DNA from: Bacteroidota bacterium
GTDB taxonomy: Bacteria; Bacteroidota; Bacteroidia; 2-12-FULL-35-15
Assembly (NCBI GenBank): GCA_947476185.1
Contig: CANJPX010000014.1
Coordinates: 1 to 57,090 of the forward strand
DNA length: 57,090 bases
Reading direction: 5' to 3'
In this document: in pieces, positions 31,066 to 52,123 of the stretch
Numbering within the stretch: the first letter of the stretch is position 1
Layout: every line of letters begins with the position of its first letter
The notes under the pieces: model-generated
What the model saw: only the letters and a program-made list of their open reading frames with translations
What the model was told of the DNA's origin: nothing
Databases searched by the model: none
Made by a program: the position numbers and the translations under genes

Positions 31066-31161
31066 CAAAGAAATAGATTAACCGGGCGCAACCAAATGAC
31101 CACAATCAAAATGGAAATTGACTAAAATCATCAAAAACAAAATAGGCTGAGATTAGCTTTG
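31066..31161. promoter_or_regulatory. paired FNR-like operator 1 with divergent promoters
   Basis: Boxes ATGAC-CACA-ATCAA (31096-31109) and TTGAC-TAAA-ATCAT (31118-31131) start 22 bp apart. Rightward, TAGCTTTG (31154-31161) is a perfect -7 element 22 bases after the second box. Leftward, TTTCTTTG on the minus strand (31066-31073) lies 22 bases from the first box. The region serves the BON gene on one side and DUF2267-usp-usp on the other. Confidence 0.75.
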
Positions 31162-31180
31162 ATAGATAAAAAACAAGACC

Positions 31181-31666
31181 ATGAACTTCAATAAACATGC
31201 ACAAAAAGGCAACCTTTTTCTTAAAGAACTCGCAAAAGAATTAGGTGATGTATCAGATATAAACAGAGCAAATAGATTACTGAGGGCTGTGTTACACACT
31301 TTGCGAAATCATATTCCACAAAGAGAAAGTTTTCAATTTATATCTCAACTTCCAATGATGCTAAAAGCACTATATGTTGACGGTTGGATCCCAACAGAAG
31401 AACAAAAAAGTTCGAAAAAAAAGGAAAAATTTATTGAGGAAGTACTTCGTAACGATTATTTCAGTTTAAATAAAGACTTTTCGAAGTTCGAAGAAGGATT
31501 AAAAGTCACAAAAGCGGTTTTTAGAGTGTTAAAAAAACATGTATCTGAAGGAGAGTATAAAGACATAGAGGCAACATTGCCAAAGAAACTGAAGGATCTT
31601 TTAAAAAGTAGAATTCAATACAAAAAAATTAAATTGGAAAATGTTTACCAGCTTACTACCGCATAA
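31181..31666 (+). CDS. DUF2267 domain protein
   Basis: The 161-residue all-alpha soluble protein contains two tandem halves resembling DUF2267, with ANRLLRAVLHTLRNHIPQRESFQFISQLP in the first and the KAVFRVLKKHVSEGEYKDIEATLP pattern in the second. It is found next to universal stress and BON proteins in many stress islands, and its biochemical role is unknown. It is the first gene of an operon with two universal stress proteins. Confidence 0.8.
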   Translation: MNFNKHAQKGNLFLKELAKELGDVSDINRANRLLRAVLHTLRNHIPQRESFQFISQLPMMLKALYVDGWIPTEEQKSSKKKEKFIEEVLRNDYFSLNKDFSKFEEGLKVTKAVFRVLKKHVSEGEYKDIEATLPKKLKDLLKSRIQYKKIKLENVYQLTTA

Positions 31667-31708
31667 TTTATTTAATGAAAAAATTATTTGTAAGATAATC
31701 AAGATATA

Positions 31709-32608
31709 ATGAAAAATAAAAAATCAATTATATTAGTGGCTCTAGATTTTTCAAAATGTTCTGAAAATGCATTGGATTATACCATAAAAAGCTATAGGGA
31801 ATATAACGCCAAGATTGTTCTTGTTCATGCTATTCAAGAAAATTACACTGAACCATCGATTAAGAAGCTCATTGATAAGGATAAAAAAAAAACGAAAGAA
31901 AACATCAGTAAGAAGCTTGAAGATATTCTCCTGAAAAAATTAAAAAAAACAAGTTCAAGATGTGAATATGAGATAATAACAGAATTTGGTCCACCCTTAG
32001 AAACAATTCTAAAAACAATACGGAAGGTTAAACCATTCTTCGTGATAATAGGAGCAAAAAAGACGATAGGTTTTATGCAACGTTTTTTCCGGAATGACAC
32101 CATCAAAGTAGCAAAACAAACTAAATTTCCGGTGGTCATAATTCCTGAGGATGCCCATTATAAAAAAATAAAAAGGATAACATTTGCAACCAATTATAAT
32201 CTGAGTGATATAAAATCAATAAAAAATCTAGCAGAACAGGCAAAGCCCTATAATATAGAAATCATTGTTTTACATATATCAGATGGTGAATTTGACATTG
32301 AATTTGAAGATTTAATGATAAATGATTTTAATAAAAAGGTAAGTAAAAGAGTCCATTATAAAAATATTTCATATAGGATAATAGAAGGCGATAATATTGA
32401 CGAGATCATTAAGCATTATTTAACGCAAAAAAACACAGAACTGTTTGCGTTTGCCACCTGCATAAATAATGGACGGCATTTAGATCTGTTGGAGAACAGA
32501 GTCAGCAAAATAATTCCACAAAGCCCAATTCCTTTAATGGCGTACCATTATAAAGGAGAAAAAGATTTTCTATATACAAAAAAAATAAAACATGAAAGAG
32601 CATTATAA
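31709..32608 (+). CDS. universal stress protein (tandem Usp domains)
   Basis: The 299-residue protein contains two Usp alpha/beta domains (about residues 5-145 and 150-285). The first ends in FVIIGAKKTIGFMQRFF, a poor version of the ATP-binding G-2x-G-9x-G-S/T motif, and the second lacks it, so nucleotide binding is doubtful. Its end overlaps the next usp gene by 17 bases. Expression should follow the upstream paired operator. Confidence 0.85.
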   Translation: MKNKKSIILVALDFSKCSENALDYTIKSYREYNAKIVLVHAIQENYTEPSIKKLIDKDKKKTKENISKKLEDILLKKLKKTSSRCEYEIITEFGPPLETILKTIRKVKPFFVIIGAKKTIGFMQRFFRNDTIKVAKQTKFPVVIIPEDAHYKKIKRITFATNYNLSDIKSIKNLAEQAKPYNIEIIVLHISDGEFDIEFEDLMINDFNKKVSKRVHYKNISYRIIEGDNIDEIIKHYLTQKNTELFAFATCINNGRHLDLLENRVSKIIPQSPIPLMAYHYKGEKDFLYTKKIKHERAL

Positions 32609-33521
32609 TATTCTGCTAGCCACCGATTATTCGGAAGCTGTGATGAATGCGGAACGCTATGCGGTCCAATTCGCACAAAAAACAAATTCAAACCTTACAC
32701 TACTGCACGTATATAAGGGTCCTTTGATTTCACTTCTAACTGAAAATAAAGAAATTACAGTGAAATTGGCGGAATACAAAGAGAAACAATTAAGATCATT
32801 AAAAAGTCACACTAGTAGGCTATTAAAAACGTTAAAACTCAGCAAGTATGATATCGAATGCCAGGAGATTGTGAGAGAAGGAAGTGCCGGCAAAGAGATC
32901 TTGGAAGAAGCGAAAGAAATGGATGTAGATTTTATCATCGTTGGTACACACGGGGAAAGTGGTTTCAGGGAAACATTTTTCGGAACACATACATGGCAAG
33001 TAATAAAAGAAGCAGCAATACCTGTTCTAGCAATTCCTCAAGATGCATTTTATAAAGGAATCAAAGAGATCGTTTTTGCCACAGAATTCCGGGAAGGAGA
33101 AATCCCTGTCATTAAATTTCTTTCACATCTGGCAAAGCAATTCGATGCGGCGTTAACAATACTCCACATCACGAATAATACCCTTCCGAAAGATTTTGAA
33201 AAACAATTGATGAAAAACTTTTTGGATGAAGCAAAAAGTCAAACAAATAACTATGCGTTGAATATAGAGATCTTGAAAAATGATGATATAAATGAAGGAA
33301 TTAATAATTATTGCAACAATAATCCGGTGGATTGGCTGATAATGTCGTCTGAAAAAAAATTCATATTTGAAAAAATATTTGCATCCGGTCCAAATAAAGT
33401 AAAAAAAATGGCATTTCAAACCCTAATACCCTTATTAACTGTTCCTGATCATTATGATCCCCGATTTTCAAAATTCCTGGATATCGTTGATGTAAACACC
33501 TATATGGATGATGCCTATTAA
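32592..33521 (+). CDS. universal stress protein (tandem Usp domains, ATP-binding type)
   Basis: The 309-residue protein is a two-domain Usp. The first domain has a textbook nucleotide-binding loop, GTHGESGFRETFFGTHT, matching G-2x-G-9x-G-S/T, so it probably binds ATP. The second domain is degenerate. It is the third gene of the DUF2267-usp-usp operon and is followed by a strong hairpin terminator. Confidence 0.88.
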   Translation: MKEHYNILLATDYSEAVMNAERYAVQFAQKTNSNLTLLHVYKGPLISLLTENKEITVKLAEYKEKQLRSLKSHTSRLLKTLKLSKYDIECQEIVREGSAGKEILEEAKEMDVDFIIVGTHGESGFRETFFGTHTWQVIKEAAIPVLAIPQDAFYKGIKEIVFATEFREGEIPVIKFLSHLAKQFDAALTILHITNNTLPKDFEKQLMKNFLDEAKSQTNNYALNIEILKNDDINEGINNYCNNNPVDWLIMSSEKKFIFEKIFASGPNKVKKMAFQTLIPLLTVPDHYDPRFSKFLDIVDVNTYMDDAY

Positions 33522-33636: not shown

Positions 33637-34260
33637 TCACCAAATAAAAACAGGATTAGAACCATAAATTTTATTTACACTTCCATCGTTCATACGTTTT
33701 AACCTTCTTTCCAATTTATGATTATATTCTTCGATGATATCATCCATATTCCCATAGTTCGAAACTAATTCCTGCTCAATAGGCTCATTTTCAAAATCCT
33801 CTTTGGGTTCTGCAGAAAAAAGAGGATCTACTCCCACTTCACCAGAATGACTCTTATTATTCCGGATATCCAATAAATTCAATTTATCCCTCAACTCTTT
33901 AATAAGTTCATTTTCCTTTTTATTTATTCCCCTGTAAGAAGAGGCGATTTCCTTTACAACATGGATACACACCCTTTTCATTTTGGCATCAAAAGCCGTA
34001 TGATGTTCAGTTATAAAATCTATAAATGAATTAAATGCAGCTTCTGAATCTAAAAATTGCTCATCACTGAAATCAAATTCAATTTCCGAATAAAATGCTG
34101 CGATTGTCCCGAATTCATCCGTATGTTTTTCATAGGGGACCAATTCCTCTCTGACAATCTTTTGCAATTTTAATTTTTCCTGCTGGGTTATTACTTTGTC
34201 GATATCTGCCACGGCATATAGTAACTTGCCAAGCTCTGAGTAAAATTCTTTGTAAAGCAT
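33637..34260 (-). CDS. TerB-like protein
   Basis: The 207-residue soluble helical protein begins with a TerB-like pattern (ELGKLLYAVADIDKVITQQEKLKLQKIV) and further acidic helices with SYRGINKKENELIKEL. The acidic C-terminal 70 residues look disordered. It resembles the smaller 135-residue protein encoded at 51.0-51.4 kb, so the island holds two paralogues. TerB folds bind metal or membranes in tellurite/stress systems, but the specific role is unknown. Its promoter carries the paired FNR-like boxes. Confidence 0.6.
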   Translation of the reverse strand: MLYKEFYSELGKLLYAVADIDKVITQQEKLKLQKIVREELVPYEKHTDEFGTIAAFYSEIEFDFSDEQFLDSEAAFNSFIDFITEHHTAFDAKMKRVCIHVVKEIASSYRGINKKENELIKELRDKLNLLDIRNNKSHSGEVGVDPLFSAEPKEDFENEPIEQELVSNYGNMDDIIEEYNHKLERRLKRMNDGSVNKIYGSNPVFIW

Positions 34261-34330: not shown

Positions 34331-34396
34331 CTAAACTAATTTTATAAAATATAAATGACTTTGATGAAAATCAAAACCGCCGCTGATATAGATCAA
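34331..34396 (-). promoter_or_regulatory. paired FNR-like operator 2
   Basis: TTGAT-GAAA-ATCAA (34361-34374, a perfect FNR consensus) and CTGAT-ATAG-ATCAA (34383-34396) start 22 bp apart. On the minus strand TAGTTTAG (34331-34338) lies 22 bases downstream as the likely -7 element of the TerB-like gene. Confidence 0.75.
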
Positions 34397-34552: not shown

Positions 34553-35146
34553 CTATGCCATGTGCTCAGCAGAAGTACTTTCAAAATCTTCAGTAGAATG
34601 ATTAACATCGGTCGGGTGCTGATCAGGATTAATCTTCAGTTTATGATTATGATTATTCATACCCCCCTTTAGCGAATTCATATACCAGATAAGATTAGCG
34701 GATGTAATGGCGATAACAATTCCAAAATAAAGAACCTCCAACGGATTTTTCCATTCAACAATTTTTTGAACCATAAAGACTGCCAAAAAAACAATAACCG
34801 CTTTGGCTAACTCTGATTTCATTTCATCAAGAGAATCAATATGAAACCACCAAAGCACCTGCAAAGGTCCAACAAATAACTTATAGATCCCGACAGAAAA
34901 CATATAAAAAATGATCGCCTGCAAATAGATCTCTATGATAAGCAAGAACTTTGCAGATATCTTTAATGTATCAATATCATGAGTAATAAATATCTCAGAA
35001 TATAACTCGTTGGCGATAAAACAAATTTTTAATATCCCAATTATTACAAGAAGTACAGCAGCGAGATCTAAAACTACAACTGCAAGGGAAGCAAAACCTT
35101 TACTCCTACTCAAAAAAGTTCCTATATGAATTATTTTTTTTAGCAT
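34553..35146 (-). CDS. UPF0114 (YqhA-type) membrane protein
   Basis: The protein has 197 residues from the ATG at 35146. Four hydrophobic segments and the YKLFVGP...HIDSLDEMKSELAKAVIVFLAV signature match the UPF0114/YqhA family. The C-terminal 40 residues are hydrophilic and His-rich. A longer reading from 35230 is rejected because the promoter's -7 element (35187-35194) and the proximal FNR-like box (up to 35230) would fall inside it. The function of the family is unknown. Confidence 0.75.
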   Translation of the reverse strand: MLKKIIHIGTFLSRSKGFASLAVVVLDLAAVLLVIIGILKICFIANELYSEIFITHDIDTLKISAKFLLIIEIYLQAIIFYMFSVGIYKLFVGPLQVLWWFHIDSLDEMKSELAKAVIVFLAVFMVQKIVEWKNPLEVLYFGIVIAITSANLIWYMNSLKGGMNNHNHKLKINPDQHPTDVNHSTEDFESTSAEHMA

Positions 35147-35186
35147 CCTGAACAATTTAAAAAAAAATGAAATATTAACACGTTTG

Positions 35187-35252
35187 CAAATGTAATCCGA
35201 CAAAAATATTTTGATATTGAGAAATATCAAAATACAAATTGATAGAAAACAT
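35187..35252 (-). promoter_or_regulatory. paired FNR-like operator 3
   Basis: TTGAG-AAAT-ATCAA (35217-35230) and the weaker TTGAT-AGAA-AACAT (35239-35252) start 22 bp apart. A perfect minus-strand -7 element TACATTTG (35187-35194) follows 22 bases beyond the first box, toward the UPF0114 gene. Confidence 0.7.
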
Positions 35253-35280: not shown

Positions 35281-37041
35281 TTAATATTCATGTTTAAGTT
35301 TTTTTTCGAATTTTAAAAGTTTGAATTTATTTATTTCTTCCCATGATCTTGTATTCAAAACATCTCCCTTTTTACACCAGGCACGCCTGGCAATCGAAAC
35401 ACCTAATTTCATGAATTCGAAATTTTTAAGAGCGTGACTATCTGTACTGATCGAGAGCATTACTCCCCTCTCAACTGCAAACTTTGCAAGTATCTCATTC
35501 AGGTCCATTCGATCCGGCTGAGCATTTATCTCTAAAGCTGTATTTGTATATTTTGCCGTTTCCATCACCTTTTCAAAATCAATTTGATAGGATTCCCGTT
35601 TACCGATCAACCTGCCTGTAGGATGGCCGATACAATTCACAAAGGGATTTTCACACGCTTTTATGATCCGATCAGTATTATCAATATTAAATCTACTATG
35701 AATAGATGCGGTAACCCAATCAAACTCTGCAAGAAGTTCATCAGAAAAATCAAGACCTCCGTCAGGAAGAATATCAACCTCAATGCCTGCTTTTACATAA
35801 TCTTCATCAAGTTCCTTATTAATACTTCTTATCTCATGTAATTGTTGCAGGACTCTTTTTTTATCCATTCCATGGGCAATACGCGAAGATCTGGAATGAT
35901 CGGTAATAACGATATACTTATAATCATAATTCTTTCTGACATGATGAACGATCGCTTCCATGGTGTTCAGGCCGTCACTGTAAATGCTATGCATTTGCAT
36001 ATCTCCGGCAATGTCATTCTCATTGATAAGTTCAGGTAATTTATGTTTTTGTCCCAACTCAATTTCACCTTTATCCTCGCGCAGTTCAGGAGGAATATAT
36101 TGAAACCCAAGGGTAGAATAAATGTCCTTTTCAGTTTTACTTGCAATACGTTTACCGGTTTTTATTGAAAATATACCGTATTCAGAAATTTTAAATCCTT
36201 TTTCCTTGGCGATGGTTCTCAAGTGCACACTGTGCTCCTTAGAGCCTGTAAAATAAAGCAAAGCAGAACCCCATTCATCTTCATTAACAATTCTCAGATC
36301 AACTTGTCTCCCATTCTCCTTCAAAATAATACTAACCATCGTATCGCCTTTTACTAAAACTTGTCCGGCAAAATCTGTGTCCGCAAAATGCTTAACAACA
36401 ATTTTACGTGCCCTTTCATCACATGAAACCAGAATATCAATATCGCCAATGGTTTCCTTTCTCCGTCTTAAACTACCGGCTAATTCGGCATTATGAATTT
36501 CAGGGATCTGTCTCAGCCAATTCAAAACAGTTTCACCGACCTCAAGTGCGTCCCAAAGCAGAAGACGTTCTTCAATCGTTTTGTGGATCTTGAGACCTAC
36601 TAACATCTTGTTGACCTTTGTTTTTCCAAATCCTTTGATCTTTGCTATTGAACCATTATGCAAAGCTTCTATGATCTCTTCTTTTGTTGAAATGTGCAAT
36701 TTTTCATGAATATTTTTTAATGATTGTGTACCAAAACCAGTTATATCCATCATATCAAGTAATTCAAAAGGCACTCCTTTTTTTAACTCTTCAAATTTTT
36801 TTATTTTCCCTGTCCGGATGTATTCTTTAATCTTTCCGGCCATACCCTCCCCTATTCCACTTAAACCCTCCAATGTATCATTTTGCAAATAGGTGGATAT
36901 ATTCTTAGGCAAGGAAGCCAACATTTTTGATGCTTTCAAGTATGCCAAACACCGAAAACGTTCTTCTGCTCCCTTATATTTATAAATGTTTGACATTTCC
37001 ATAAATATTTTCACCAGTTCCATATTTTTTTTGAACCCCAT
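35281..37041 (-). CDS. polX: DNA polymerase X family protein with PHP domain
   Basis: The 586-residue protein has N-terminal helix-hairpin-helix units (GIGEGMAGKIKEYI, GFGKTKVNKMLV). The polymerase X nucleotidyltransferase core has metal-binding acids in TIGDIDILV and RQVDLRIV. The C-terminal PHP phosphoesterase has MQMHSIYSDG, ITDHS and EINAQPDRMD. PolX fills short gaps in base-excision repair and has 3' processing activities. Unusually it shares a control region with the ferritin-like YciE gene and carries paired FNR-like boxes, placing DNA repair in the stress regulon. Confidence 0.92.
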   Translation of the reverse strand: MGFKKNMELVKIFMEMSNIYKYKGAEERFRCLAYLKASKMLASLPKNISTYLQNDTLEGLSGIGEGMAGKIKEYIRTGKIKKFEELKKGVPFELLDMMDITGFGTQSLKNIHEKLHISTKEEIIEALHNGSIAKIKGFGKTKVNKMLVGLKIHKTIEERLLLWDALEVGETVLNWLRQIPEIHNAELAGSLRRRKETIGDIDILVSCDERARKIVVKHFADTDFAGQVLVKGDTMVSIILKENGRQVDLRIVNEDEWGSALLYFTGSKEHSVHLRTIAKEKGFKISEYGIFSIKTGKRIASKTEKDIYSTLGFQYIPPELREDKGEIELGQKHKLPELINENDIAGDMQMHSIYSDGLNTMEAIVHHVRKNYDYKYIVITDHSRSSRIAHGMDKKRVLQQLHEIRSINKELDEDYVKAGIEVDILPDGGLDFSDELLAEFDWVTASIHSRFNIDNTDRIIKACENPFVNCIGHPTGRLIGKRESYQIDFEKVMETAKYTNTALEINAQPDRMDLNEILAKFAVERGVMLSISTDSHALKNFEFMKLGVSIARRAWCKKGDVLNTRSWEEINKFKLLKFEKKLKHEY

Positions 37042-37108: not shown

Positions 37109-37204
37109 CAAAAATATTACAACTCTCCTTACTTCTGATTGAACTTTATCAAAGGGGGGCTTGATAATCATCATTCAAATTATGTATTTACGTATCTATT
37201 TTTG
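37109..37204. promoter_or_regulatory. paired FNR-like operator 4 with divergent promoters
   Basis: TTGAA-CTTT-ATCAA (37139-37152) and TTGAT-AATC-ATCAT (37161-37174) start 22 bp apart. Perfect TATTTTTG -7 elements lie on both sides at exactly 22 bases: minus strand 37109-37116 toward polX and plus strand 37197-37204 toward the YciE-like gene. This is the cleanest divergent example in the window. Confidence 0.85.
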
Positions 37205-37225: not shown

Positions 37226-37738
37226 ATGAACAGGATACATGACTTGTCAGAATTATTTATGGAATACCTAAAGGATATTTACAGTGCAGAAAAGCAACAA
37301 TTAGAATGCCTTCCGAGATTCATATCAAAACTCGAGAACATAAATTTAAAAGAGCTTTTGGAACGGAATTTAGAAAGGACAAAGGTGCATGAAAAGAGAA
37401 TTGAAAGTATTTTTGAATTATTGAAAGATAATTTTCATTTACATTCGGATCTGGTGATGGAGGAATTACTTTGCAGGATCAATAAATTACTCAAGTACAG
37501 TGATAATAATAAAATATTAGATGCAAGTTTTATTTCTTCCATGCAAGGCATTGTATATTATGAAATAGCGACCTATGGTATGCTGCGATCACTAGCCGCT
37601 ACACTCAATTATCACCCAGAGATCATCTCCCTGTTAATACAAACATTAGATGATGAAAATAGATTTGAACTTGAATTGGAAAACCTTGCAAAAGAAGCTG
37701 TATTTAAAAAAGTAAAACAATTTTCCATTGCTGTCTGA
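37226..37738 (+). CDS. YciE/YciF-type ferritin-like protein (DUF892)
   Basis: The 170-residue four-helix protein has the DUF892 start LSELFMEYLKDIYSAEKQQLECLPRF, with repeated E-x2-K/H pairs (RTKVHEKRIESIF; YYEIATYGMLRSLAATL) suited to a dinuclear metal centre. The family is induced by osmotic and oxidative stress and its enzymatic role is not settled. It is divergent from polX over the shared operator. Confidence 0.82.
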   Translation: MNRIHDLSELFMEYLKDIYSAEKQQLECLPRFISKLENINLKELLERNLERTKVHEKRIESIFELLKDNFHLHSDLVMEELLCRINKLLKYSDNNKILDASFISSMQGIVYYEIATYGMLRSLAATLNYHPEIISLLIQTLDDENRFELELENLAKEAVFKKVKQFSIAV

Positions 37739-37866: not shown

Positions 37867-37933
37867 TTGATGAATATCAATCCCCAGATTGATATTCATC
37901 ATTTATAAGAATCGTACTGCTTCTATAAATTTG
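37867..37933 (+). promoter_or_regulatory. paired FNR-like operator 5
   Basis: TTGAT-GAAT-ATCAA (37867-37880, perfect) and TTGAT-ATTC-ATCAT (37889-37902) start 22 bp apart and also form a 13-bp inverted repeat with each other. TAAATTTG (37926-37933) follows 23 bases later as the -7 element for the glycosyltransferase-like gene. Confidence 0.8.
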
Positions 37934-41740: not shown

Positions 41741-41764
41741 AATTTCCAAGATTAAATTCAACTG

Positions 41765-41861
41765 CAAAATACTTTAATAACATAGTTAAATTTAATGACT
41801 ACTATCAAAATAGTATTTGATAGTCATCATTTAAACGAAGAAGTAAGTTGTAATAAATTTG
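41765..41861. promoter_or_regulatory. paired FNR-like operator 6 with divergent promoters
   Basis: ATGAC-TACT-ATCAA (41795-41808) and TTGAT-AGTC-ATCAT (41817-41830) start 22 bp apart. Rightward, TAAATTTG (41854-41861) is a perfect -7 element at 23 bases. Leftward, the minus strand reads GTATTTTG (41765-41772) at 22 bases, the same octamer found at operator 8. Confidence 0.75.
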
Positions 41862-41927
41862 AACGAAATAAAACAAATAAAATTGAAAACGATAGCAGCA
41901 ATATATATTCTCTTTTTTGTTACGACA

Positions 41928-42383: not shown

Positions 42384-43016
42384 ATGTTCAGAAACCGACA
42401 TGATGCAGCAATAGTAATAGCTGCAAAGCTCAGCAGATATAAAGGTGAAAAGGGAATCGTATTGGCTATCCCACGGGGCGGAGTACCAATTGGGAAAATA
42501 ATTGCAGATGAACTAAATTTCCCATTAGAAATTATTCTGGCAAAAAAGATCGGACATCCGAACAATCCTGAATATGCGATTGGCTCACTCAGTGAATTAG
42601 GCTGGGTTATAAACGAAAATATAAAAGATGTATCTATGGATTACATCCAGAAAGAATCGGCGCGACTATCGATTAAATTAAAAAAAATATATAAATTATA
42701 TATGGGAGATAAAAAGCCCAGCGACCTTAAAAATATGATCGTGATTTTGGTTGACGATGGTATTGCCACAGGCAGCACGATGATCGCAACTATTAATATG
42801 ATCAAAAAAAGTTTGCCAAAAAAATTGATCCTTGCCGTTCCGGTTGCCCCACCAGAAATTGTCAGAAAATTATCCAAGGAAGTGGATGAACTCATCTGTT
42901 TATTAACGCCCTCCGATTTTTATTCAGTAGGACAATTTTACGAAGACTTTTCACAAGTAAGTGATGAAGATGTGATTCGATTATTAGACACAAAAGTCGT
43001 AATCGAAAAAGCATAG
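42384..43016 (+). CDS. phosphoribosyltransferase family protein
   Basis: The 210-residue type I PRTase fold shows the PRPP-binding loop VILVDDGIATGSTMIA near residues 113-128 and the early GIVLAIPRGGVPIGKIIADEL strand-loop. The KIGHPNNPEYAIGSLSE insert is typical of the stress-island subgroup often paired with erythromycin-esterase or hydrolase genes, whose base substrate is unknown. It is cotranscribed with the preceding small gene. Confidence 0.85.
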   Translation: MFRNRHDAAIVIAAKLSRYKGEKGIVLAIPRGGVPIGKIIADELNFPLEIILAKKIGHPNNPEYAIGSLSELGWVINENIKDVSMDYIQKESARLSIKLKKIYKLYMGDKKPSDLKNMIVILVDDGIATGSTMIATINMIKKSLPKKLILAVPVAPPEIVRKLSKEVDELICLLTPSDFYSVGQFYEDFSQVSDEDVIRLLDTKVVIEKA

Positions 43017-43199: not shown

Positions 43200-44267
43200 C
43201 TAATTCTTTAAATTCCTGAGTTTTTTGAAATTAAGAATTTTAATGATACCGTTATCAATTTCAATTAACTTATCCTCTTTGAACTCGGTAAGGTTTCTGC
43301 TAACAGATTCAGGAGAAATACCGGCCAATGCAGAGATATTTTCACGGGCAACAGGGAAATATTCGTTCTCCTTGTCTTCAGAAAAATATTTACTATAAAT
43401 AAAAAGCAAGGCTTCAGAAACTCTTTTTCTGGCAGAATTATATGCCAATTTCAACAAGTTCTCTTCTGCTTCTAAAAGATTATTGGACAATAATTTAATG
43501 AACTTCAAAGAAACTTCATTATTAGAAAAAAGTAATTGGTAAAAATCATTTTTTGGAATTGGGGAGATCTCCGAATCTTCAATAGCCACAGCAGCTTCTT
43601 TATGATTCGACTGATCAAGCAAAGCATGATAACCAAAAAAATCACCTTCTTTATAGATCTCTGTAATGAATTCTTTACCCAATTCGTTGGTTTTAAATGT
43701 CTTTATTTTCCCTTTTACGACATAATACAGAAAATTCGGAGTATCAATTTCTAAATAAACATGTTCCTTTCTTTGAACTTTTTTTATAGTCCTGTGTTCC
43801 GAAAAAGCATTCATTTCCTTATCTGCTTTAACAACATTAATCAGACTGTCGAGGTCTTCAAAATTCCTGTTAAATTTATCCATTAAAGACTGATTCTTTT
43901 TGATTCTGGAACTGACAACACGTAAAAGATCTGTGCCGGTGAACGGTTTTGTAAGATAATCATCCGCACCAAGATCCATTCCAACCCGGAAATCTTTCGC
44001 TTCAGCCTTTGCTGTAATAAATACAAATGGAACGCCTGTCATATCCGGATTATTCTCGATGGCACGTAAAACACCGTATCCATCCAACTCCGGCATCATT
44101 ATATCACAAAGGATAAGATCAAGTTTATTATTTCTGGCTATTTCCAATCCTTCCATACCGTCATTTGCAGTAAGAACGTTATAATTCGCCAGCTTAAGAA
44201 TTTCAGATGTATTCTCTCTTACATCTTTGTTATCCTCTATTATCAGAACTGTATTATTTATTATCAT
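43200..44267 (-). CDS. response regulator-FNR/CRP fusion transcription factor
   Basis: The 355-residue protein has a receiver domain (residues 5-120) with acidic pocket Glu11-Asp12, phospho-acceptor Asp55 in LCDIMMPE, Thr85 and Lys107. A cyclic-nucleotide-type beta-roll follows (about 150-250), then an FNR/CRP winged helix (about 275-350). The recognition helix reads ISPESVSRNL. Glu320, Ser323 and Arg324 match FNR Glu209/Ser212/Arg213, which read TTGAT. FNR's iron-sulfur cysteines are absent, so input is likely phosphorylation. I infer that it controls the 22-bp paired boxes across this island, including its own promoter. No histidine kinase is nearby. Confidence 0.88.
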   Translation of the reverse strand: MIINNTVLIIEDNKDVRENTSEILKLANYNVLTANDGMEGLEIARNNKLDLILCDIMMPELDGYGVLRAIENNPDMTGVPFVFITAKAEAKDFRVGMDLGADDYLTKPFTGTDLLRVVSSRIKKNQSLMDKFNRNFEDLDSLINVVKADKEMNAFSEHRTIKKVQRKEHVYLEIDTPNFLYYVVKGKIKTFKTNELGKEFITEIYKEGDFFGYHALLDQSNHKEAAVAIEDSEISPIPKNDFYQLLFSNNEVSLKFIKLLSNNLLEAEENLLKLAYNSARKRVSEALLFIYSKYFSEDKENEYFPVARENISALAGISPESVSRNLTEFKEDKLIEIDNGIIKILNFKKLRNLKN

Positions 44268-44317: not shown

Positions 44318-44383
44318 CAAATATAATTAATGCTTAAAGAATATTCCATGATTCAAATCAGCATTTAATATGATCCGGAAAAG
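44318..44383 (-). promoter_or_regulatory. paired FNR-like operator 7 (regulator's own promoter)
   Basis: ATGAT-TCAA-ATCAG (44348-44361) is a good box. Its partner 22 bp upstream, ATGAT-CCGG-AAAAG (44370-44383), keeps only one half-site. A perfect minus-strand -7 element TATATTTG (44318-44325) follows 22 bases beyond the good box, toward the response regulator-FNR gene. The weaker pair could tune autoregulation. Confidence 0.65.
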
Positions 44384-44406: not shown

Positions 44407-45228
44407 CTATTCGTGTATTGCCAAAAGTGGTACATGCGTGTGAAATGCCACCTTCTTGGTATTTGTTTGTTGAAACAAATGCGCTAAAAAGTTATGTTTC
44501 TGTGGTATCATTATTAACATATCCACGTTGTGTTTATCCACAAAATCATTGATGCCGAAAACAAGATCATCGTTTTCCGGAAAATAGACGGAATATTTAA
44601 TATTTTCAAAAACATTTTTGATCTTTGTTTCCGAATATGCAGTTTCAAAAACCGGTTTTGCAGTTGGTTCAACAACGTTAAATATCATCAAATTGGCTTT
44701 AAAAATACCCAGGAACATTTTAATTTTTTTGATTGCCGGAGAATCACTGATTTCCTCGTAATCACAAGCTAATGCAACATTATGAACTTTTTTGTATTTC
44801 GCATTTTGAGGAACGATCAAGGTTGGACAATCGACATTTTTGATCACACCTGTTGCGTTTGTTCCGATAAGTTCTGACAATTTTCCGTCTCCGGTAATAC
44901 CCATAACGATAAGATCAACTTTTTTGGAACTGACAATATCACTTACCTCGTCAATAACAAAACCTAGGACCGCTTTCTTTTCAATGAGTATATTCTTGCC
45001 ATGTTTTGCATGTAACGTCTTTTCACAAGCAGTAAGTTGCTTCATACTATTTCTTTCCAATTCGTCTATCGAAGGCATCACAACAGGAATATCACTTGCA
45101 ACCATTGGCAAATGAAAAACATGCATCAAGATTACTTTTGCGTTGGTAAGTTTTGCAATTTCGACAGCATAATCCGCTGCATTATTTGCAGTTTTGGAAA
45201 AATCCGTGGGCATTAATATTGTTTTCAT
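44407..45228 (-). CDS. universal stress protein (tandem Usp domains)
   Basis: The 273-residue protein is a two-domain Usp. The first domain has LIVMGITGDGKLSELIGTNATG, close to the G-2x-G-9x-G-S/T ATP-binding motif. The second is degenerate and ends PQKHNFLAHLFQQTNTKKVAFHTHVPLLAI. It follows the hemerythrin-like gene after 54 bases on the same strand with no own box pair, so it is probably cotranscribed from operator 8. Confidence 0.87.
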   Translation of the reverse strand: MKTILMPTDFSKTANNAADYAVEIAKLTNAKVILMHVFHLPMVASDIPVVMPSIDELERNSMKQLTACEKTLHAKHGKNILIEKKAVLGFVIDEVSDIVSSKKVDLIVMGITGDGKLSELIGTNATGVIKNVDCPTLIVPQNAKYKKVHNVALACDYEEISDSPAIKKIKMFLGIFKANLMIFNVVEPTAKPVFETAYSETKIKNVFENIKYSVYFPENDDLVFGINDFVDKHNVDMLIMIPQKHNFLAHLFQQTNTKKVAFHTHVPLLAIHE

Positions 45229-45282: not shown

Positions 45283-45786
45283 TTAAGCCAGTATTGCCGA
45301 TAAATATTTCTTTTCCATTTCAAAATACCGTAAACAATTTTTTTCTAGCATCCGCATATCCAAATAACATTGCCTTAAGGAAGGAGATGCTATTGCTGAT
45401 GAATTGTAATTATTTGTCAGAGAATTGATTCTCTTTAACAAAGTTGAAATTATATCAATATCATTCCAAACCCTATGATATACCTTTTTATATTCAGTCG
45501 CAATGAAACTCAATTCATCGGTTAAACTTAACTTTTGAATAGCAGGGAAAAGAATAAATTTCTCTTTCGAAATATGCTGCTCCATAAGAATTTTAAATTC
45601 TATAAAATACGCATTTATTTTATCCAGATCAGACACAACCTTATCATCTATTTTTGCAACAGCGGACAATATTGTAGCTATTGCCGGTAAACTATTCCTG
45701 AAATATGAATGGTATTCTGAGACAATTGAATCAATTGCCTCATGAACAGGCATTTTTTGAACATTCGGCTGAGTTAATTTCTCCAT
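45283..45786 (-). CDS. hemerythrin-like (RIC/YtfE-type) protein with a changed metal ligand
   Basis: The 167-residue four-helix protein resembles the C-terminal domain of RIC/YtfE di-iron proteins. His26 stands in EYHSYFR, His71 and Glu75 in EQHISKEKFILFP (same spacing as RIC His129/Glu133), and His104 in VYHRVW. The last helix reads LRYFEMEKK, with Tyr154 and Glu158 where RIC has His204 and Glu208, so one iron ligand appears lost. The ATG at 45786 is used because a longer reading from 45819 would start inside the -7 element. The family repairs iron-sulfur clusters or senses NO/O2. Confidence 0.65.
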   Translation of the reverse strand: MEKLTQPNVQKMPVHEAIDSIVSEYHSYFRNSLPAIATILSAVAKIDDKVVSDLDKINAYFIEFKILMEQHISKEKFILFPAIQKLSLTDELSFIATEYKKVYHRVWNDIDIISTLLKRINSLTNNYNSSAIASPSLRQCYLDMRMLEKNCLRYFEMEKKYLSAILA

Positions 45787-45808
45787 TTTAACAGTTTTTT
45801 TCCAACAC

Positions 45809-45874
45809 CAAAAATACATGAGTTTATTTTTTGATTATTTGATATGAATCAAGACAGAGAGTGATTAATATCAC
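45809..45874 (-). promoter_or_regulatory. paired FNR-like operator 8
   Basis: TTGAT-ATGA-ATCAA (45839-45852, perfect) and GTGAT-TAAT-ATCAC (45861-45874, perfect palindrome) start 22 bp apart. The minus strand has GTATTTTG (45809-45816) 22 bases on, toward the hemerythrin-like gene, the same -7 variant as in operator 6. Confidence 0.78.
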
Positions 45875-46008: not shown

Positions 46009-46074
46009 ATGAAATACATCAATAGAAATTTTGATTTCTATCAGATCTTTTTTTTTATTTCTAAAATATCTTTG
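46009..46074 (+). promoter_or_regulatory. paired FNR-like operator 9 upstream of the 31-residue gene
   Basis: ATGAA-ATAC-ATCAA (46009-46022) and TTGAT-TTCT-ATCAG (46031-46044) start 22 bp apart. A perfect -7 element TATCTTTG (46067-46074) follows exactly 22 bases later, only 10 bases before the ATG of a 31-codon reading frame. The transcript would therefore be nearly leaderless. Confidence 0.75.
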
Positions 46075-46400: not shown

Positions 46401-46466
46401 GTGATTAGCATCACAATTCATTTTGATGCGAATCATTTTACATGGAAGGTCCGAGCAATATTTTTG
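46401..46466 (+). promoter_or_regulatory. paired FNR-like operator 10
   Basis: GTGAT-TAGC-ATCAC (46401-46414) and TTGAT-GCGA-ATCAT (46423-46436) start 22 bp apart. The first box with its flanks reads TGTGA-N6-TCACA, a full CRP consensus. TATTTTTG (46459-46466) follows 22 bases later as the -7 element of the large surface protein gene, 42 bases before its ATG. Confidence 0.8.
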
Positions 46467-46508
46467 TTCGGAAATTTAAATTCAATTATTAATTAAAAAC
46501 TATAAATT

Positions 46509-49500
46509 ATGAAACGAACGATTACCTCAATTACTGCAGGACTTTTTCTTTTCTTTTCGAGTTTGCAGGCGCAAACAACTTGTTCGGATGATCGGGTTGC
46601 TTACGTTAACTCAAAGAATGTACCCTCCACAACAGGAGCGTATACATTATCTATAGGAGCTGAAGAAAAAGCTTCGCAAGCATATCATTATTCCGGACCA
46701 GGAAAAGTTGGTGGCGCAAGAGTGTATGGAGATGTCCTTTCATTAGTAGGTGTAAAACTAAAAGTTAGTTTATACAATGTTGATGCAAACGACAGACCAA
46801 CAGGATTAGCTTTAGCATCCGCACCTATCACACCATTTTTTGCGTGGAGTGCATCCTATTTTGATGTTAATTTTTCTCCAGCTGTTCCTATCAGTTCAAA
46901 TTTTGCATTGGTAGTCGAAATCATAAATTATCCGGGCTGGGGGCACGAATTTGACCTTCGGTATACTGGGAACGGTGAAGGTTTAGGGGAGGATCTTGCA
47001 TCAATTGCAGGTACCACAACCGGACATAACTGGGCAAGTGCAATGGACGATTTTGGTAAAGATGGCGACTTTTTCATTTATCCAAGAATGACACATTTTA
47101 ATTCACCTTTGTTTACTATTGCTACTTCTTGCGTAAATGCTGGAGTTCCAGTGACTTTTTCTAATTCAACAGAAATGACCACTGATAGAATGTTTAACAT
47201 CATTACACAACCTGGCTATTCAGGTACAAATTTTTTATATACATGGAATTTTGGTGACGGATCAGCGGTTTCTCATTTACCAAATCCAAGTCACACTTAT
47301 GCAGCAGCAGGTTCATATACAATTTCATTAACAACTACAATTGATGGTTGGGATTTGGATTGTTCAAAAACATATTCAAAACCAATTTCAGTCGGACTTT
47401 CTGTAAATGCGACATCTGTTACAAATGTTTCTTGTAACGGTGGTAATAACGGAAGTGCTGTAGCTGTTGGTGCTGGTGGTGCTTCTCCATATACCTATAG
47501 TATCAATGGAGAAAGCTATCAAACAAGTACTTCATTCAGTGGTTTAATTGCCGGAGCATATACTTTATATATTAAAGATAATCTTGGGTGTATTAAAACC
47601 ACCAGTTTTACAATTACACAACCTTCTGCTATTCATTTTACTTCTGCAACTTCAACAAATGCAAGTTGTGGAAATGCTGATGGAGGTATCTTAGTTGCAT
47701 CTTCAGGTGGAATTCCGCCAATGCAATATCAAATAAATTCAGGGGCATTTCAATCAAGCGGAGCATTTACTTCTTTGAGTACTGGAGCATACACTGTGAC
47801 GGCAAAAGATGCAAATGGATGTACCTACTCTAACATTGTTCTTGTGAATGATGTTGGCGGACCAGTATTTAGTATTGTTAACGCTACAAATGTTAGTTGC
47901 TATGGAGGAAATGATGGAACTATTTCATTGTCTTCATTAGGAGGAACAGGAACAATCCTATATAGTATAAATGGTGGAACGACTTTTCAAGCAAGCGGTT
48001 CATTTACAAATGTAACTGCCGGAACATATACAGAGATCGTGAAAGATGCTGCAGGTTGTACAGACCTACAAGTTGTTACTATTAATCAGCCACAACAATT
48101 GACATTAACAGCATCGGCAGTAGCTCTTACATGCAACGGAAGTAGTAATGGTCAAATAAACGTTACTTCTGCTTCCGGTGGAACAGGAGCTATATCCTAT
48201 AGTATAAATGGAATTAGTTATCAATCAGGTACAAATTTTCATGGCTTATCTGCTGGTTCTTATACAGTATATGCAAGAGATGTAGCAGGATGTGTAAAAA
48301 CAGTGTCAGTGAATGTATTCCAGCCATCAATATTAACAGCTACTGTTTCAGTAACAAATGCGGCTTGTAATAATTACCAAGATGGTTCGATTACTATTAC
48401 GGCAAGCGGTGGAACACCTGGATATACTTATGGAATAGAAGATGATTATGAATATCAAGCATTAAGCAGTTTTGGAAATTTAGCTGCTGGAACCTACGCT
48501 TTGATTGTTATAGATGCTAATGGATGCATTTTAAATACATCCGCAACTATTAACCAACCAACAGCTATAGCGCCAGTTGCAACATCAACAAATTCTACTT
48601 GTGGTAATTCTAATGGAGGAATTCTTGTTATAGCAAGTGGCGGTTCAGGTTCAGGTTACACTTATAGTTTAAATGGTGGCGCTTTTGGAGTTGGAACTTT
48701 CACTGCATTGCTACACGGGACTTATGTTGTAACAGCAAAAGATGGATCGGGATGTATGTCTGCAATCAATGTAACTATTCTTGATTCTGACGGACCATCT
48801 GTGGTTTCTTCATCTCATACAAATGTTAATTGTCACCAGGGCAGTGATGGAACCATCACAGTAGGAACAGTAACAGGTGGTACAGGAGCTCTTACATATT
48901 CTGTTAACGGAACAACGTATCAATCATCACCCGTATTTACAGGATTAGCTGCCGGAGTTTATGATGTAACAGTAAAAGATGTTGTAGGTTGTGTTGGAAA
49001 TGTAACAATCACAGTTACAGAACCAAATGCATTTGTAATTACAACTTCTGTTGTAAATGAATTATGTAACGGAAGCGCTACTGGTACAGCAGCAATGCTA
49101 GTTGGTGGTGGTTCAGGAACTTTAGCTTATAGCAATAACTACGGTAGTTCATTTCAATCTAGCAATACATTTACTGGCTTAGCAGCAGGCAATTACGTTT
49201 TAATGGTAAAAGATGCCGGTGGTTGTATCGGAAGTGCCGCTATAACAATTACTCAACCGGATGCTATTCACGCTTTCTATGGATCATTAAATGTAACTTG
49301 TAATGGCGCAAATGACGGGACAATAAATGTTTTTGCATATGGCGGAACAGGAACCTTACAATACAGTTTAAATGGAACCACTTACCAGCTCTCAAACATT
49401 TTCTTCGGCCTTTCAGGTGGGACTTACAGTGTTTATGTAAAAGATGCAAACGGATGTGTTGTAGTTATAACTGCTGCTGTATATCAACCTGCAACATTAG

Positions 49501-50201
49501 CAGTTGCTTCAAATCTGACTGACGTAACTTGTTCTGGTGGAAATAATGGTGTAATTGACTTAAGTATTTCAGGTGGAACTCCCCAATATTATTTTGATTG
49601 GTCAAATGGTGTTTACACTGAAGATAATTTTAACCTTACAGCTGGAACTTACACGGTAATTGTAAGTGATGGTTATGGTTGTTCTAATACACTTACATAT
49701 ACAATTGAAGAGCCTGCAGTACCGGTAATTGTCAATGGAACAGTAGTGAATTCTTCAGGAACTAGCAACGGTTCTATTGATGTAACAACAACAGGCGGTG
49801 TAGGAGCATATACTTTCTCATGGTCAAATGGCGCAACTACTGAAGACATCACCGGTTTAGCTCCGGGTGTTTACACAGTTATTGTGACTGATGCAAATGG
49901 TTGTGCTGCTTCTTCAACATTTGTTGTTGCAAGTGCTGTCGGAATAGCCACAATCGATGCAGTTAGCAGTCAGGTTTATGTTTATCCTAACCCTGCAAAT
50001 GATTATGTAGTAATCGAAATTAATGGATATAAAATGGAAAAAGTTGAAATCTATGATGTTCTTGGTCAGATCATGTTTACCGGAGAACCGAATAGCTCAA
50101 AACTGCAAGTAAATACTTCAGAATTAAGCCAAGGTGTTTATCTTGTTAAAATCATGGTAGATAATAAATTAATAACTAAAAAGATGAAAGTTATTAAATA
50201 G
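46509..50201 (+). CDS. large surface protein with PKD domain, 11 SprB-type repeats and T9SS sorting domain
   Basis: The 1230-residue protein starts with a signal peptide (MKRTITSITAGLFLFFSSLQAQ). A beta-rich N-domain runs to about residue 200. A PKD domain (YTWNFGDGSAVSHLPNPSHTY) lies near 245-295, then eleven 70-80-residue repeats of the SprB family with core C-x-G-x2-G-x-I ... G-T-Y-x-V-x-V-x-D-x2-G-C. The C-terminal sorting domain (VYVYPNPANDYVVIEI ... GVYLVKIM) sends it through T9SS. SprB-type proteins are gliding or adhesion filaments. Placement behind a CRP/FNR-type site pair suggests stress-controlled attachment. Confidence 0.85.
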   Translation: MKRTITSITAGLFLFFSSLQAQTTCSDDRVAYVNSKNVPSTTGAYTLSIGAEEKASQAYHYSGPGKVGGARVYGDVLSLVGVKLKVSLYNVDANDRPTGLALASAPITPFFAWSASYFDVNFSPAVPISSNFALVVEIINYPGWGHEFDLRYTGNGEGLGEDLASIAGTTTGHNWASAMDDFGKDGDFFIYPRMTHFNSPLFTIATSCVNAGVPVTFSNSTEMTTDRMFNIITQPGYSGTNFLYTWNFGDGSAVSHLPNPSHTYAAAGSYTISLTTTIDGWDLDCSKTYSKPISVGLSVNATSVTNVSCNGGNNGSAVAVGAGGASPYTYSINGESYQTSTSFSGLIAGAYTLYIKDNLGCIKTTSFTITQPSAIHFTSATSTNASCGNADGGILVASSGGIPPMQYQINSGAFQSSGAFTSLSTGAYTVTAKDANGCTYSNIVLVNDVGGPVFSIVNATNVSCYGGNDGTISLSSLGGTGTILYSINGGTTFQASGSFTNVTAGTYTEIVKDAAGCTDLQVVTINQPQQLTLTASAVALTCNGSSNGQINVTSASGGTGAISYSINGISYQSGTNFHGLSAGSYTVYARDVAGCVKTVSVNVFQPSILTATVSVTNAACNNYQDGSITITASGGTPGYTYGIEDDYEYQALSSFGNLAAGTYALIVIDANGCILNTSATINQPTAIAPVATSTNSTCGNSNGGILVIASGGSGSGYTYSLNGGAFGVGTFTALLHGTYVVTAKDGSGCMSAINVTILDSDGPSVVSSSHTNVNCHQGSDGTITVGTVTGGTGALTYSVNGTTYQSSPVFTGLAAGVYDVTVKDVVGCVGNVTITVTEPNAFVITTSVVNELCNGSATGTAAMLVGGGSGTLAYSNNYGSSFQSSNTFTGLAAGNYVLMVKDAGGCIGSAAITITQPDAIHAFYGSLNVTCNGANDGTINVFAYGGTGTLQYSLNGTTYQLSNIFFGLSGGTYSVYVKDANGCVVVITAAVYQPATLAVASNLTDVTCSGGNNGVIDLSISGGTPQYYFDWSNGVYTEDNFNLTAGTYTVIVSDGYGCSNTLTYTIEEPAVPVIVNGTVVNSSGTSNGSIDVTTTGGVGAYTFSWSNGATTEDITGLAPGVYTVIVTDANGCAASSTFVVASAVGIATIDAVSSQVYVYPNPANDYVVIEINGYKMEKVEIYDVLGQIMFTGEPNSSKLQVNTSELSQGVYLVKIMVDNKLITKKMKVIK
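47409..49935 (+). repeat. eleven tandem SprB-type repeat units
   Basis: The eleven units are diverged at DNA level but keep two cysteines, an internal YSING/YSLNG strand and a GxxAGxYxVxVKDxxGC end. Units 2 and 6 form a subtype (N-A/S-T/S-CGN...GGILV), as do 1, 3, 7 and 9, suggesting duplication in blocks. The last two units switch to a WSNG-containing form. Confidence 0.8.
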
Positions 50202-50223: not shown

Positions 50224-50257
50224 AAAGAGCGCCCTACAGTTTTGCAGGGCGCTCTTT
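50224..50257 (+). terminator. strong hairpin terminator after the SprB-type gene
   Basis: Perfect 12-bp arms AAAGAGCGCCCT and AGGGCGCTCTTT enclose a 10-base loop, 22 bases after the stop codon. The following T-tract is short (TTTATG). Confidence 0.8.
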
Positions 50258-50291
50258 ATGATTACAATACATACTGAATTTTTTTGTCAGA

Positions 50292-51004: not shown

Positions 51005-51412
51005 TTAGCGCACCTTGCTTGCATAGTAAACAGGGTCTCCCTTCAAGGGTAATATGAGTTTTTTAAATTTATCGATCATATCTCTTTCTTCTTTGGTAAC
51101 CGGAGGAAATGCCTTCGCTATATTTTCCATAACATTAATGAATTTACTTTTCAGCTTCGGACTCAAATAATGGCTGTTATTGTTTACTTCTTTAACAGCC
51201 CATTTAAAAACAGTTTCGCTATCCTGTTTATCCTTATCCATTATCTGAAAAATAATATCAGAGATATCAAAATCATGATCATCTTTCAATTCCGAAACAA
51301 TTATGGAATGAAACTTTTCGCGTTCCTCTTTCTGAACTTTGCCATCAATATTTGCGATGCAATATGCCATTTCACCAATGGCATAATGAAGATTTTTTAT
51401 AGGAGAATCCAT
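51005..51412 (-). CDS. TerB-like protein, small paralogue
   Basis: The 135-residue helical protein starts NLHYAIGEMAYCIANIDGKVQKEEREKF, matching in pattern the first half of the 207-residue protein at 33.6-34.3 kb (ELGKLLYAVADIDKVITQQEKLKL). A C-terminal FPPVTKEERDMIDKFKKL helix repeats the ITxxEx motif, giving the two-fold layout of TerB folds. It is cotranscribed with the upstream glycine-zipper stress protein gene (27-base gap). The role is unknown. Confidence 0.6.
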   Translation of the reverse strand: MDSPIKNLHYAIGEMAYCIANIDGKVQKEEREKFHSIIVSELKDDHDFDISDIIFQIMDKDKQDSETVFKWAVKEVNNNSHYLSPKLKSKFINVMENIAKAFPPVTKEERDMIDKFKKLILPLKGDPVYYASKVR

Positions 51413-51439
51413 TTTCTTAAAATTTTTTATATGTTAATA

Positions 51440-51976
51440 TTACATTATAACCAACTCAATATAATTTCCAACCTTATGAGCAATTTTCTTGGCCTTTTCA
51501 GCTGTAGCTTTATTTGAATTAAGAATAACAAGGTATTTACCTTCCTTAAGATGTTTGTGGTACGAAACTATTTTATCTTTTTTGATCCCGATATTCAATA
51601 AAATAGTAGCAATGCCACCCGACACTAATCCTATATCAAAACCGGCAAGAGCGCCAACAATAGCACCTGCACCATAAACAAAGCCCAATCCGGGAACGGC
51701 CCAAATACTTGCACCGGCCAATACACCAAGTAATGGTCCAAGTACAGCACCTATTGCCACCGGAGCATTTTTCACATTTTTAGTAGAGTGGACATGAAGA
51801 TCATCTGCAACGATAACTGCAGTACTTAAAAATGAAATGTTCTCAACAGGTATCCCAGCCTTCTCCAAGGCTACAATAGCATTAATGGCTTCATCGTGAG
51901 ATTGATAAACCCCAACAGTAGTACGGATCATATCCAACTCGTTTTTTTCTATTTTATTAATAAGGTCTCGTTGCAT
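51440..51976 (-). CDS. general-stress-type protein with N-terminal 17M-like domain and glycine-zipper
   Basis: About 178 residues. An alpha/beta domain (TVGVYQSHDEAINAIVALEKAGIPVENISFLS) resembles the YflT/general stress protein 17M fold. A long Gly/Ala-rich hydrophobic segment (GAVLGPLLGVLAGASIWAV ... GAIVGALAGFDIGLVSGGIA) follows, likely a membrane-inserting glycine zipper, with a C-terminal ferredoxin-like strand set. ATGs at 51976 and 51931 are both possible. It is divergent from the NRAMP gene over a shared box pair. Confidence 0.68.
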   Translation of the reverse strand: MQRDLINKIEKNELDMIRTTVGVYQSHDEAINAIVALEKAGIPVENISFLSTAVIVADDLHVHSTKNVKNAPVAIGAVLGPLLGVLAGASIWAVPGLGFVYGAGAIVGALAGFDIGLVSGGIATILLNIGIKKDKIVSYHKHLKEGKYLVILNSNKATAEKAKKIAHKVGNYIELVIM

Positions 51977-52027
51977 GACAGATATTTTTAATATTATGAA
52001 CAACATTTAAAAAAGAAACTACAGAGT

Positions 52028-52123
52028 CAAATTTCATTATACGACATTCAATTTTCAATGATCTCAAATACTTCAAACAGTGATTTCAATCACAACATTT
52101 ATTATAATGAATAGTCATATTTG
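52028..52123. promoter_or_regulatory. paired FNR-like operator 11 with divergent promoters
   Basis: ATGAT-CTCA-AATAC (52058-52071, one good half) and GTGAT-TTCA-ATCAC (52080-52093, perfect palindrome) start 22 bp apart. Rightward, CATATTTG (52116-52123) lies at exactly 22 bases toward the NRAMP gene. Leftward, the minus strand reads GAAATTTG (52028-52035) at 22 bases toward the stress protein. Confidence 0.65.

What the first reader, a model, noticed from the sequence alone, without database searches (positions are those of the whole stretch)
31066..52123. A compact regulon defined by two FNR-like boxes exactly 22 bp apart and 22-23 bp from a TAnnTTTG element
Eleven intergenic regions carry two TTGAT-N4-ATCAA-like boxes whose first bases differ by exactly 22 (box starts 31096/31118, 34361/34383, 35217/35239, 37139/37161, 37867/37889, 41795/41817, 44348/44370, 45839/45861, 46009/46031, 46401/46423, 52058/52080). 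All 22 boxes keep the first TGA, and 19 keep TCA. In about 15 directions a -7-like element begins 22 (sometimes 23) bases after the proximal box, which puts that box centre near -40/-41, the class II activator position. The distal box is two helical turns farther on the same face. I know of FNR/CRP class II promoters, but not of this strict double-site code in Bacteroidota. The genes served form a stress/low-oxygen-type island.
Basis: partly seen in the sequence, partly recalled or inferred. Interest (0 to 1): 0.93.

Follow-up and report, generated by a model that had tools for sequence, protein, structure and literature searches.

The report
Double-box promoters of receiver-CRP fusion regulator
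In this Bacteroidota bacterium and many relatives, stress and respiration genes carry two FNR-like DNA boxes 22 letters apart at a fixed distance from the promoter core, a layout that is likely read by a protein in which a two-component receiver is fused to a CRP/FNR-type DNA-binding part, which would make it a strict and easily tested gene switch.

Summary
Eight of the eleven pairs match TGA-N6-TCA twice at a 22-bp period exactly (0.01 expected); the genome has 22 exact pairs, 0 in the reversed control. TAnnTTTG begins 23 or 24 bases after the proximal box in 10 of 22 window directions, 14 with one mismatch. With the published -7 position the boxes centre on -41.5 and -63.5. The geometry recurs around homologues of the regulator in Bacteroidota (50 pairs at 22, none in control). 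That regulator (43200-44267) is a receiver + cNMP + Crp-HTH fusion; a PAS histidine kinase gene sits directly upstream in 61 of 66 named homologues, though not here. Pairs cluster near fusion genes (39 of 97; 1.8 expected; 8 genomes). Genes beside pairs elsewhere include cbb3 oxidase, lactate-type dehydrogenase, Usp, Hsp20. Best model: a phospho-switched CRP/FNR activator binding two abutting sites, DosR-like in logic. Against exclusivity: genomes without a detected fusion use the same layout, so other CRP/FNR proteins read it too. Binding, start sites and the oxygen signal are untested.

The parts
43200..44267 (-). Regulator: receiver (PF00072) + cNMP-binding (PF00027) + HTH_Crp_2 (PF13545), 355 aa; predicted reader of the pairs
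   Evidence: 29 homologues aligned (D55, T85, K107 invariant)
31097..31130 (+). Exact pair; -7 TAGCTTTG at 31154-31161, towards DUF2267 and two Usp genes (31181-33521); 5/6 -7 in the other direction, towards the BON gene (30365-31033)
34362..34395 (-). Exact pair; 5/6 -7 element TAGTTTAG at 34331-34338, towards 33637-34260 (TerB-like, below Pfam cut-off)
35218..35251 (-). Pair with 1 mismatch; -7 TACATTTG at 35187-35194, towards the UPF0114 gene (34553-35230 as called mechanically; true start must be further in)
37140..37173 (.). Exact pair with exact -7 elements on both sides (37109-37116 towards the PolX-like gene 35281-37041; 37197-37204 towards the DUF892 gene 37226-37738)
37868..37901 (+). 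Exact pair; -7 TAAATTTG at +24 (37926-37933), towards a 577-aa protein without Pfam match (37993-39726)
41796..41829 (+). Exact pair; -7 TAAATTTG at +24 (41854-41861), towards 41859-42284 and a phosphoribosyltransferase gene (42384-43016)
44349..44382 (-). Pair with 2 mismatches; -7 TATATTTG at 44318-44325, towards the fusion gene itself (predicted autoregulation)
45840..45873 (-). Exact pair; -7 TATTTTTG at 45809-45816, towards the hemerythrin-like gene (45283-45819) and Usp (44407-45228)
46010..46043 (+). Exact pair; -7 TATCTTTG at 46067-46074; no clear ORF of 60 aa or more starts within 400 bp downstream
46402..46435 (+). Exact pair; -7 TATTTTTG at 46459-46466, towards the SprB-repeat protein gene (46509-50201)
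52059..52092 (.). Weakest pair, 2 mismatches, 5/6 -7 elements on both sides, between the YflT-like gene (51440-52006) and the Nramp gene (52121-53413)

Best explanation
Each pair is a two-site promoter element, boxes 22 bp apart with a TAnnTTTG element 23-24 bases downstream in most cases, that is likely bound by two abutting dimers of the receiver-CRP/FNR fusion encoded at 43200-44267, or of a related protein, and would activate transcription from centres at -41.5 (class II) and -63.5. Inferred steps: a soluble PAS histidine kinase, encoded next to the paralogue in this genome and next to most homologues, phosphorylates the receiver; phosphorylation favours binding of two dimers side by side on one face of the helix; the proximal dimer contacts RNA polymerase and the distal one stabilises it; the fusion feeds back on its own gene; the signal is most likely low oxygen or a related respiratory stress. 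Shown: geometry, statistics, domain make-up, neighbourhood, distribution. Not shown: binding, phosphorylation, cooperativity, start sites, signal.
For: Pairs and -7 spacing far above controls. 70 of 72 exact pairs (22 own, 50 in named loci) lie outside ORFs of 90 aa or more. 39 of 97 exact pairs in the eight genomes whose sites were all listed (G000-G007, of 36 in the genus) lie within 25 kb of a fusion gene, 1.8 expected. Pairs in 28 of 28 fusion genomes and 3 of 8 others of the genus; in the class 179 of 198 with a full-length fusion, 66 of 109 with a partial match only, 21 of 87 with none, one repeat-rich genome dropped. G003: nine exact pairs (control 1) and two Crp-type HTH proteins, of which only the fusion has the E...R signature of the recognition helix. 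Kinase directly upstream in 61 of 66 named fusions. DevR/DosR precedent: its receiver part gives cooperative binding to an adjacent box (PMC3029386, passages).
Against: Genomes without a detected fusion also hold pairs with the same -7 distance, so the fusion is not the only reader and the receiver is not needed for the spacing. 37 of 69 named loci have no exact pair within the 10 kb looked at, and 19 of 198 fusion genomes have none at all. Kinase promoters are only mildly enriched: exact pair in 8 of 61 against 16 of 285 random ORF starts of the same loci. The window's copy has no kinase next to it. A link between site flank and recognition helix holds for G000 and G001 only; G002 and G010 break it. 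The genomes compared are related, so p-values overstate independence.
Confidence: 0.66

Rival explanations
1. The pairs are read mainly by standalone FNR/FixK-like proteins; the fusion is one more target or a modulator.
For: Own genome has 13 HTH_Crp_2 matches, among them three FNR-like proteins with an N-terminal cysteine cluster and one without. Pairs lie just upstream of a standalone CRP gene in G014 and G022, which lack a detected fusion. Class genomes with only a partial match to the fusion profile have more pairs than those with none (median 1 against 0).
Against: Pair counts are highest with the fusion (median 4) and pairs cluster next to it. In G003 the fusion is the only protein with the E...R signature, yet it has nine pairs. 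The FNR-like gene on C6 has a single-type promoter, and single promoters differ in the 5' base (A in 8 of 11; T in 15 of 18 doubles).
Confidence: 0.24
2. Mixed occupancy: one box is bound by the fusion and the other by an FNR-like protein, so that the pair works as an AND gate of kinase and oxygen signals.
For: Both protein kinds are present in this genome and the box cores are alike.
Against: No consistent difference between distal and proximal box was found that would fit two readers; G003 has only one candidate reader.
Confidence: 0.08
3. Chance or repeat elements in AT-rich DNA.
For: None found beyond AT-richness (window G+C 0.345).
Against: Shuffles and reversed-pattern controls, varied letters between the fixed positions, fixed -7 distance.
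Confidence: 0.01

Closest known systems
CRP/FNR class II activation with the proximal site at -41.5, as in E. coli CRP and FNR (recalled)
   Same: TGA-N6-TCA palindrome; proximal centre at -41.5 by calculation from the -7 element
   Different: A second site at a fixed 22-bp step, the Bacteroidota -7 element, and a receiver domain on the candidate regulator
DevR/DosR of Mycobacterium tuberculosis (PMC3029386, passages)
   Same: Response regulator; closely packed boxes, the proximal one at the -35 region; receiver-dependent cooperativity and autoregulation in DevR; Usp and Hsp20 among the genes (recalled for DevR)
   Different: DevR has a NarL-type output domain, here it is Crp-type; cooperativity here is untested
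FixL/FixJ/FixK of rhizobia (recalled)
   Same: PAS kinase, receiver and CRP-type regulator; FixO/COX1 genes beside pairs
   Different: Here receiver and CRP parts are one protein; the kinase scores 102 bits on the FixL model against a cut-off of 850
Low-oxygen-activated (lxa) locus of Burkholderia cenocepacia (listing and abstract starts only)
   Same: Usp-rich island tied to low oxygen
   Different: Other phylum; regulator and promoter layout were not compared here

Membership tests
CRP/FNR superfamily regulator | cNMP-binding domain followed by Crp-type HTH | tested here: met
   PF00027 63.9 bits (cut-off 27.5), PF13545 46 bits (cut-off 27)
FNR proper | N-terminal cysteine cluster for an Fe-S centre | tested here: not met
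   the 355-aa protein has one cysteine, C54, in the receiver; it scores 67.9 bits on the Fnr model, cut-off 228
CRP proper | cAMP binding | tested here: inconclusive
   no conserved arginine at residues 212-226 in 29 homologues, where E. coli CRP has R82 (recalled); 72.7 bits on the CRP model, cut-off 266; binding not testable
Two-component response regulator | receiver domain with phospho-acceptor Asp, Thr and Lys | tested here: met
   PF00072 97.1 bits; D12, D55, T85, K107 invariant in 29 sequences
Two-component response regulator | cognate kinase encoded alongside | tested here: inconclusive
   61 of 66 named homologues and the own paralogue on C73, but not the window's copy
DosR/DevR (NarL family) | NarL/LuxR-type output domain | tested here: not met
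   output domain is cNMP + HTH_Crp_2
FixL | FixL model score above cut-off | tested here: not met
   L084 kinase 102.2 bits, cut-off 850; haem binding not testable
Class II CRP/FNR promoter | activator site centred at about -41.5 from the mapped start | tested here: inconclusive
   -41.5 computed from the -7 element at +23 and its published place (-12 to -5); start sites not mapped

The most novel reading that the evidence does not exclude
A phylum-wide two-component dormancy/low-oxygen switch built on a CRP chassis: phosphorylated receiver domains bridge two CRP/FNR dimers into a unit that reads only boxes 22 bp apart at -41.5/-63.5, turning graded kinase input into all-or-none activation, while single-box promoters of the same genome (5' A type) answer to classical FNR.
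Probability: 0.25. Interest if true: 0.82.

Novelty: new variant of a known kind. Interest (0 to 1): 0.66.

Why it matters
A promoter code that can be read from sequence would cover many Bacteroidota genomes and tie a large regulator family (7191 proteins at E <= 1e-30 among 7998 scored candidates) to concrete target genes. It allows a direct test of whether receiver domains help CRP-type dimers to bind in tandem, and gives a regulon predictor for low-oxygen and stress physiology in soil, water and host Bacteroidota. No paper describing this promoter layout or the fusion's function turned up in the listings (open-licence papers only; one search returned no paper); most subscription papers are not in that library.

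Tried and rejected
Receiver domain as the general cause of the 22-bp spacing: rejected as a general rule, because pairs with the same -7 distance occur in genomes without a detected fusion. A code between recognition-helix residue 323 (S or I) and the inner flanking base: T at 79 of 124 flanks in G000 + G001 against 19 of 114 in 12 genomes with the I-type only, but G002 (1 of 16) and G010 (1 of 10) carry the S-type and break it (one search had left out G010, G024 and G025, added; for genomes with more than five sites only the listed ones were used); in the named loci the difference is weak. Kinase promoters as preferred sites: only mild enrichment. Fusion as the sole CRP protein of G003: a second one (L247) exists, without the E...R signature. 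The AlphaFold model (pLDDT 79, pTM 0.41, weak linker 134-158) gives no reliable domain arrangement. Among the 60 best chains shown in each PDB sequence search none matches both the receiver and the CRP part. The first class tally had one count misplaced and was redone; G343 (135 pairs, 68 in the control) was dropped there as repeat-rich. Of the 32 promoters, one (on C88) was not held as sequence, so 31 were scored.
Full report
OBSERVATION. As TGA-N6-TCA twice at period 22, eight are exact; 35218 has one mismatch, 44349 and 52059 two. The exact pattern occurs 8 times in the window against 0.01 in shuffles. The window has 38 single boxes, and among all box pairs up to 80 bp apart only spacing 22 occurs, 8 times. 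In the whole genome (4.25 Mb, 220 contigs, 92% complete) there are 22 exact pairs against 0 for the reversed pattern, and 50 against 8 with up to one mismatch. A variable-gap search not tied to 22 found 28 distinct places, 12 of them at period 22 and at most 3 at any other.

PROMOTER GEOMETRY. TAnnTTTG starts 23 bases after the proximal TCA in 8 and 24 bases after it in 2 of the 22 window directions; with one mismatch allowed it is 14 of 22. Over the 22 exact pairs of the own genome (44 directions, the window's included) it is at +23 in 13, at +24 in 2, and once at each of two other offsets; over 50 pairs in named loci (100 directions) it is at +23 in 19 and at most once at any other offset. 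In Flavobacterium psychrophilum the -7 box lies at -12 to -5 (PMC9723704, passages). That puts the proximal centre at -41.5 and the distal one at -63.5. Start sites are not mapped here.

TWO PROMOTER CLASSES IN ONE GENOME. A search for box + 23 + TAnnTTTG that ignores the distal box found 32 places in the own genome (both strands) against 1 in the control. For 31 of them the upstream DNA was held: 18 have a distal box of at least 5 of 6 letters at exactly 22, 2 have 4 of 6, 11 have 3 or fewer; no other offset from 13 to 44 reaches 5 of 6 more than once. Of the 11 singles, two lie inside long ORFs and one more has no ORF downstream, so some are chance. Doubles are preceded by T (15 of 18), singles by A (8 of 11; Fisher p 0.0003 and 0.00004). 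Ten downstream genes were scanned: on the single side a Nuo chain 3, an electron transfer flavoprotein, a 3-hydroxyacyl-CoA dehydrogenase, a 2-hydroxyglutaryl-CoA dehydratase subunit, an Fe-S protein, a ScdA/hemerythrin protein and one without match; on the double side a nitroreductase and a short-chain dehydrogenase; one unclear case a START-domain protein. The FNR-like gene on contig C6 has a single-type promoter. I infer at least two readers.

THE REGULATOR. 43200-44267 encodes receiver + cNMP-binding + HTH_Crp_2. D55, T85 and K107 are invariant in 29 homologues, and no FNR-type cysteine cluster is present. A paralogue (47% identical) on contig C73 has a PAS-HisKA-HATPase kinase gene just upstream and an exact pair 187 bp beyond the kinase start; its perfect -7 element points to the divergent gene, not to the kinase. 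In 66 named fusions a kinase homologue is directly upstream in 61. In genus loci (one per genome) 8 of 9 fusions of the window's subtype show no kinase within the roughly 1.5 kb held, some of them near contig ends, while 19 of 19 of the other subtype do. The window's copy therefore looks like an orphan duplicate placed in a stress island; it has a weak pair and a perfect -7 element in its own promoter.

DISTRIBUTION. Around 69 named loci matched by the fusion profile (66 with both parts in one ORF; 1.28 Mb): 50 exact pairs at 22, 7 at 23, at most 3 at any other spacing up to 100, none at 22 when the sequence is reversed; 32 of 69 loci have at least one. In 395 genomes of the class (five best candidates scored per genome), exact pairs occur in 179 of 198 with a full-length fusion (E <= 1e-75; median 4), in 66 of 109 with only a partial match (median 1) and in 21 of 87 with none (median 0), one repeat-rich genome left out. 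In the genus, 28 of 28 fusion genomes and 3 of 8 others have a pair. These genomes are related, so the p-values overstate independence. Nearness is the stronger link: 39 of 97 exact pairs in G000-G007 (the genomes whose sites were listed in full, 8 of 36) lie within 25 kb of a fusion gene, 1.8 expected. G003 has nine exact pairs (one in the control) and two Crp-type HTH proteins, of which only the fusion has the E...R signature in the recognition helix (93% complete).

AGAINST EXCLUSIVE READING BY THE FUSION. Genomes without a detected fusion also hold pairs. In 20 stretches from seven of them TAnnTTTG is at +23 in 8 of 52 directions; in two a standalone CRP gene lies just downstream of the pair; in G297 and G326 three boxes stand in a row at 22. 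The 25 genes beside these pairs include cytochrome c/cbb3-type proteins, a hydrogenase small subunit and pyruvate:ferredoxin oxidoreductase, and no homologue of the window island was found in these stretches. So the layout belongs to a group of Bacteroidota CRP/FNR proteins of which the fusion seems the main user where present. G022, with nine pairs and no fusion found, is only 78% complete.

FUNCTION. Genes around the window pairs: Usp, BON, DUF2267, DUF892, hemerythrin, PolX-like, UPF0114, SprB-repeat protein and others. Of 61 genes beside pairs in the named loci, either side and with or without a -7 match: PAS kinase 8, Usp 4, YceI 4, 2-hydroxyacid dehydrogenase 3 with both domains (6 match the catalytic model), cation ATPase 3, FixO 2, COX1 2, hemerythrin 2; an Hsp20 gene in L112. 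A homologue of the window's Usp proteins lies within 10 kb of the fusion in 28 of 69 named loci. These families are typical of low-oxygen regulons (recalled), and F. psychrophilum raises cbb3 oxidase under oxygen limitation. Oxygen as the signal is an inference.

MECHANISM. Two CRP-type dimers at a 22-bp step would abut on one face of the helix (inference from the known 22-bp CRP site length, recalled). In DevR/DosR determinants in the receiver part give cooperative binding to a second, closely packed box (PMC3029386, passages). The same logic with a CRP output is the most economical reading where the fusion is present. Nothing here shows cooperativity, and since fusion-less genomes use the same spacing, the receiver cannot be the only cause of it.

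Noticed in passing
46402-50201: A 1230-aa protein with ten SprB repeats and a type IX secretion sorting tail stands under an exact pair with a perfect -7 element, so a secreted surface protein would belong to the stress regulon.
   Followed up: no
L176, L177 (G297) and L180 (G326): Three TGA-N6-TCA boxes in a row at 22-bp steps in genomes without a detected fusion.
   Followed up: partly
own genome, contigs C1, C6, C13, C37, C39 and others (L193-L222): Single-box promoters with 5' A (ATGA-N6-TCAT) in front of respiratory and energy genes, apparently a second promoter class.
   Followed up: partly
23032-27863: Y-family polymerase gene, a 980-aa ORF and an SRAP gene in a row, which looks like a mutagenesis/SOS cassette; the 980-aa ORF was not scanned.
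   Followed up: no
40403-41767: Erythromycin-esterase-family protein inside the stress island, next to an exact pair but without a -7 match in its direction.
   Followed up: no
14651-18717: Two tandem DUF4139/DUF4140 proteins with carboxypeptidase-regulatory-like inserts.
   Followed up: no
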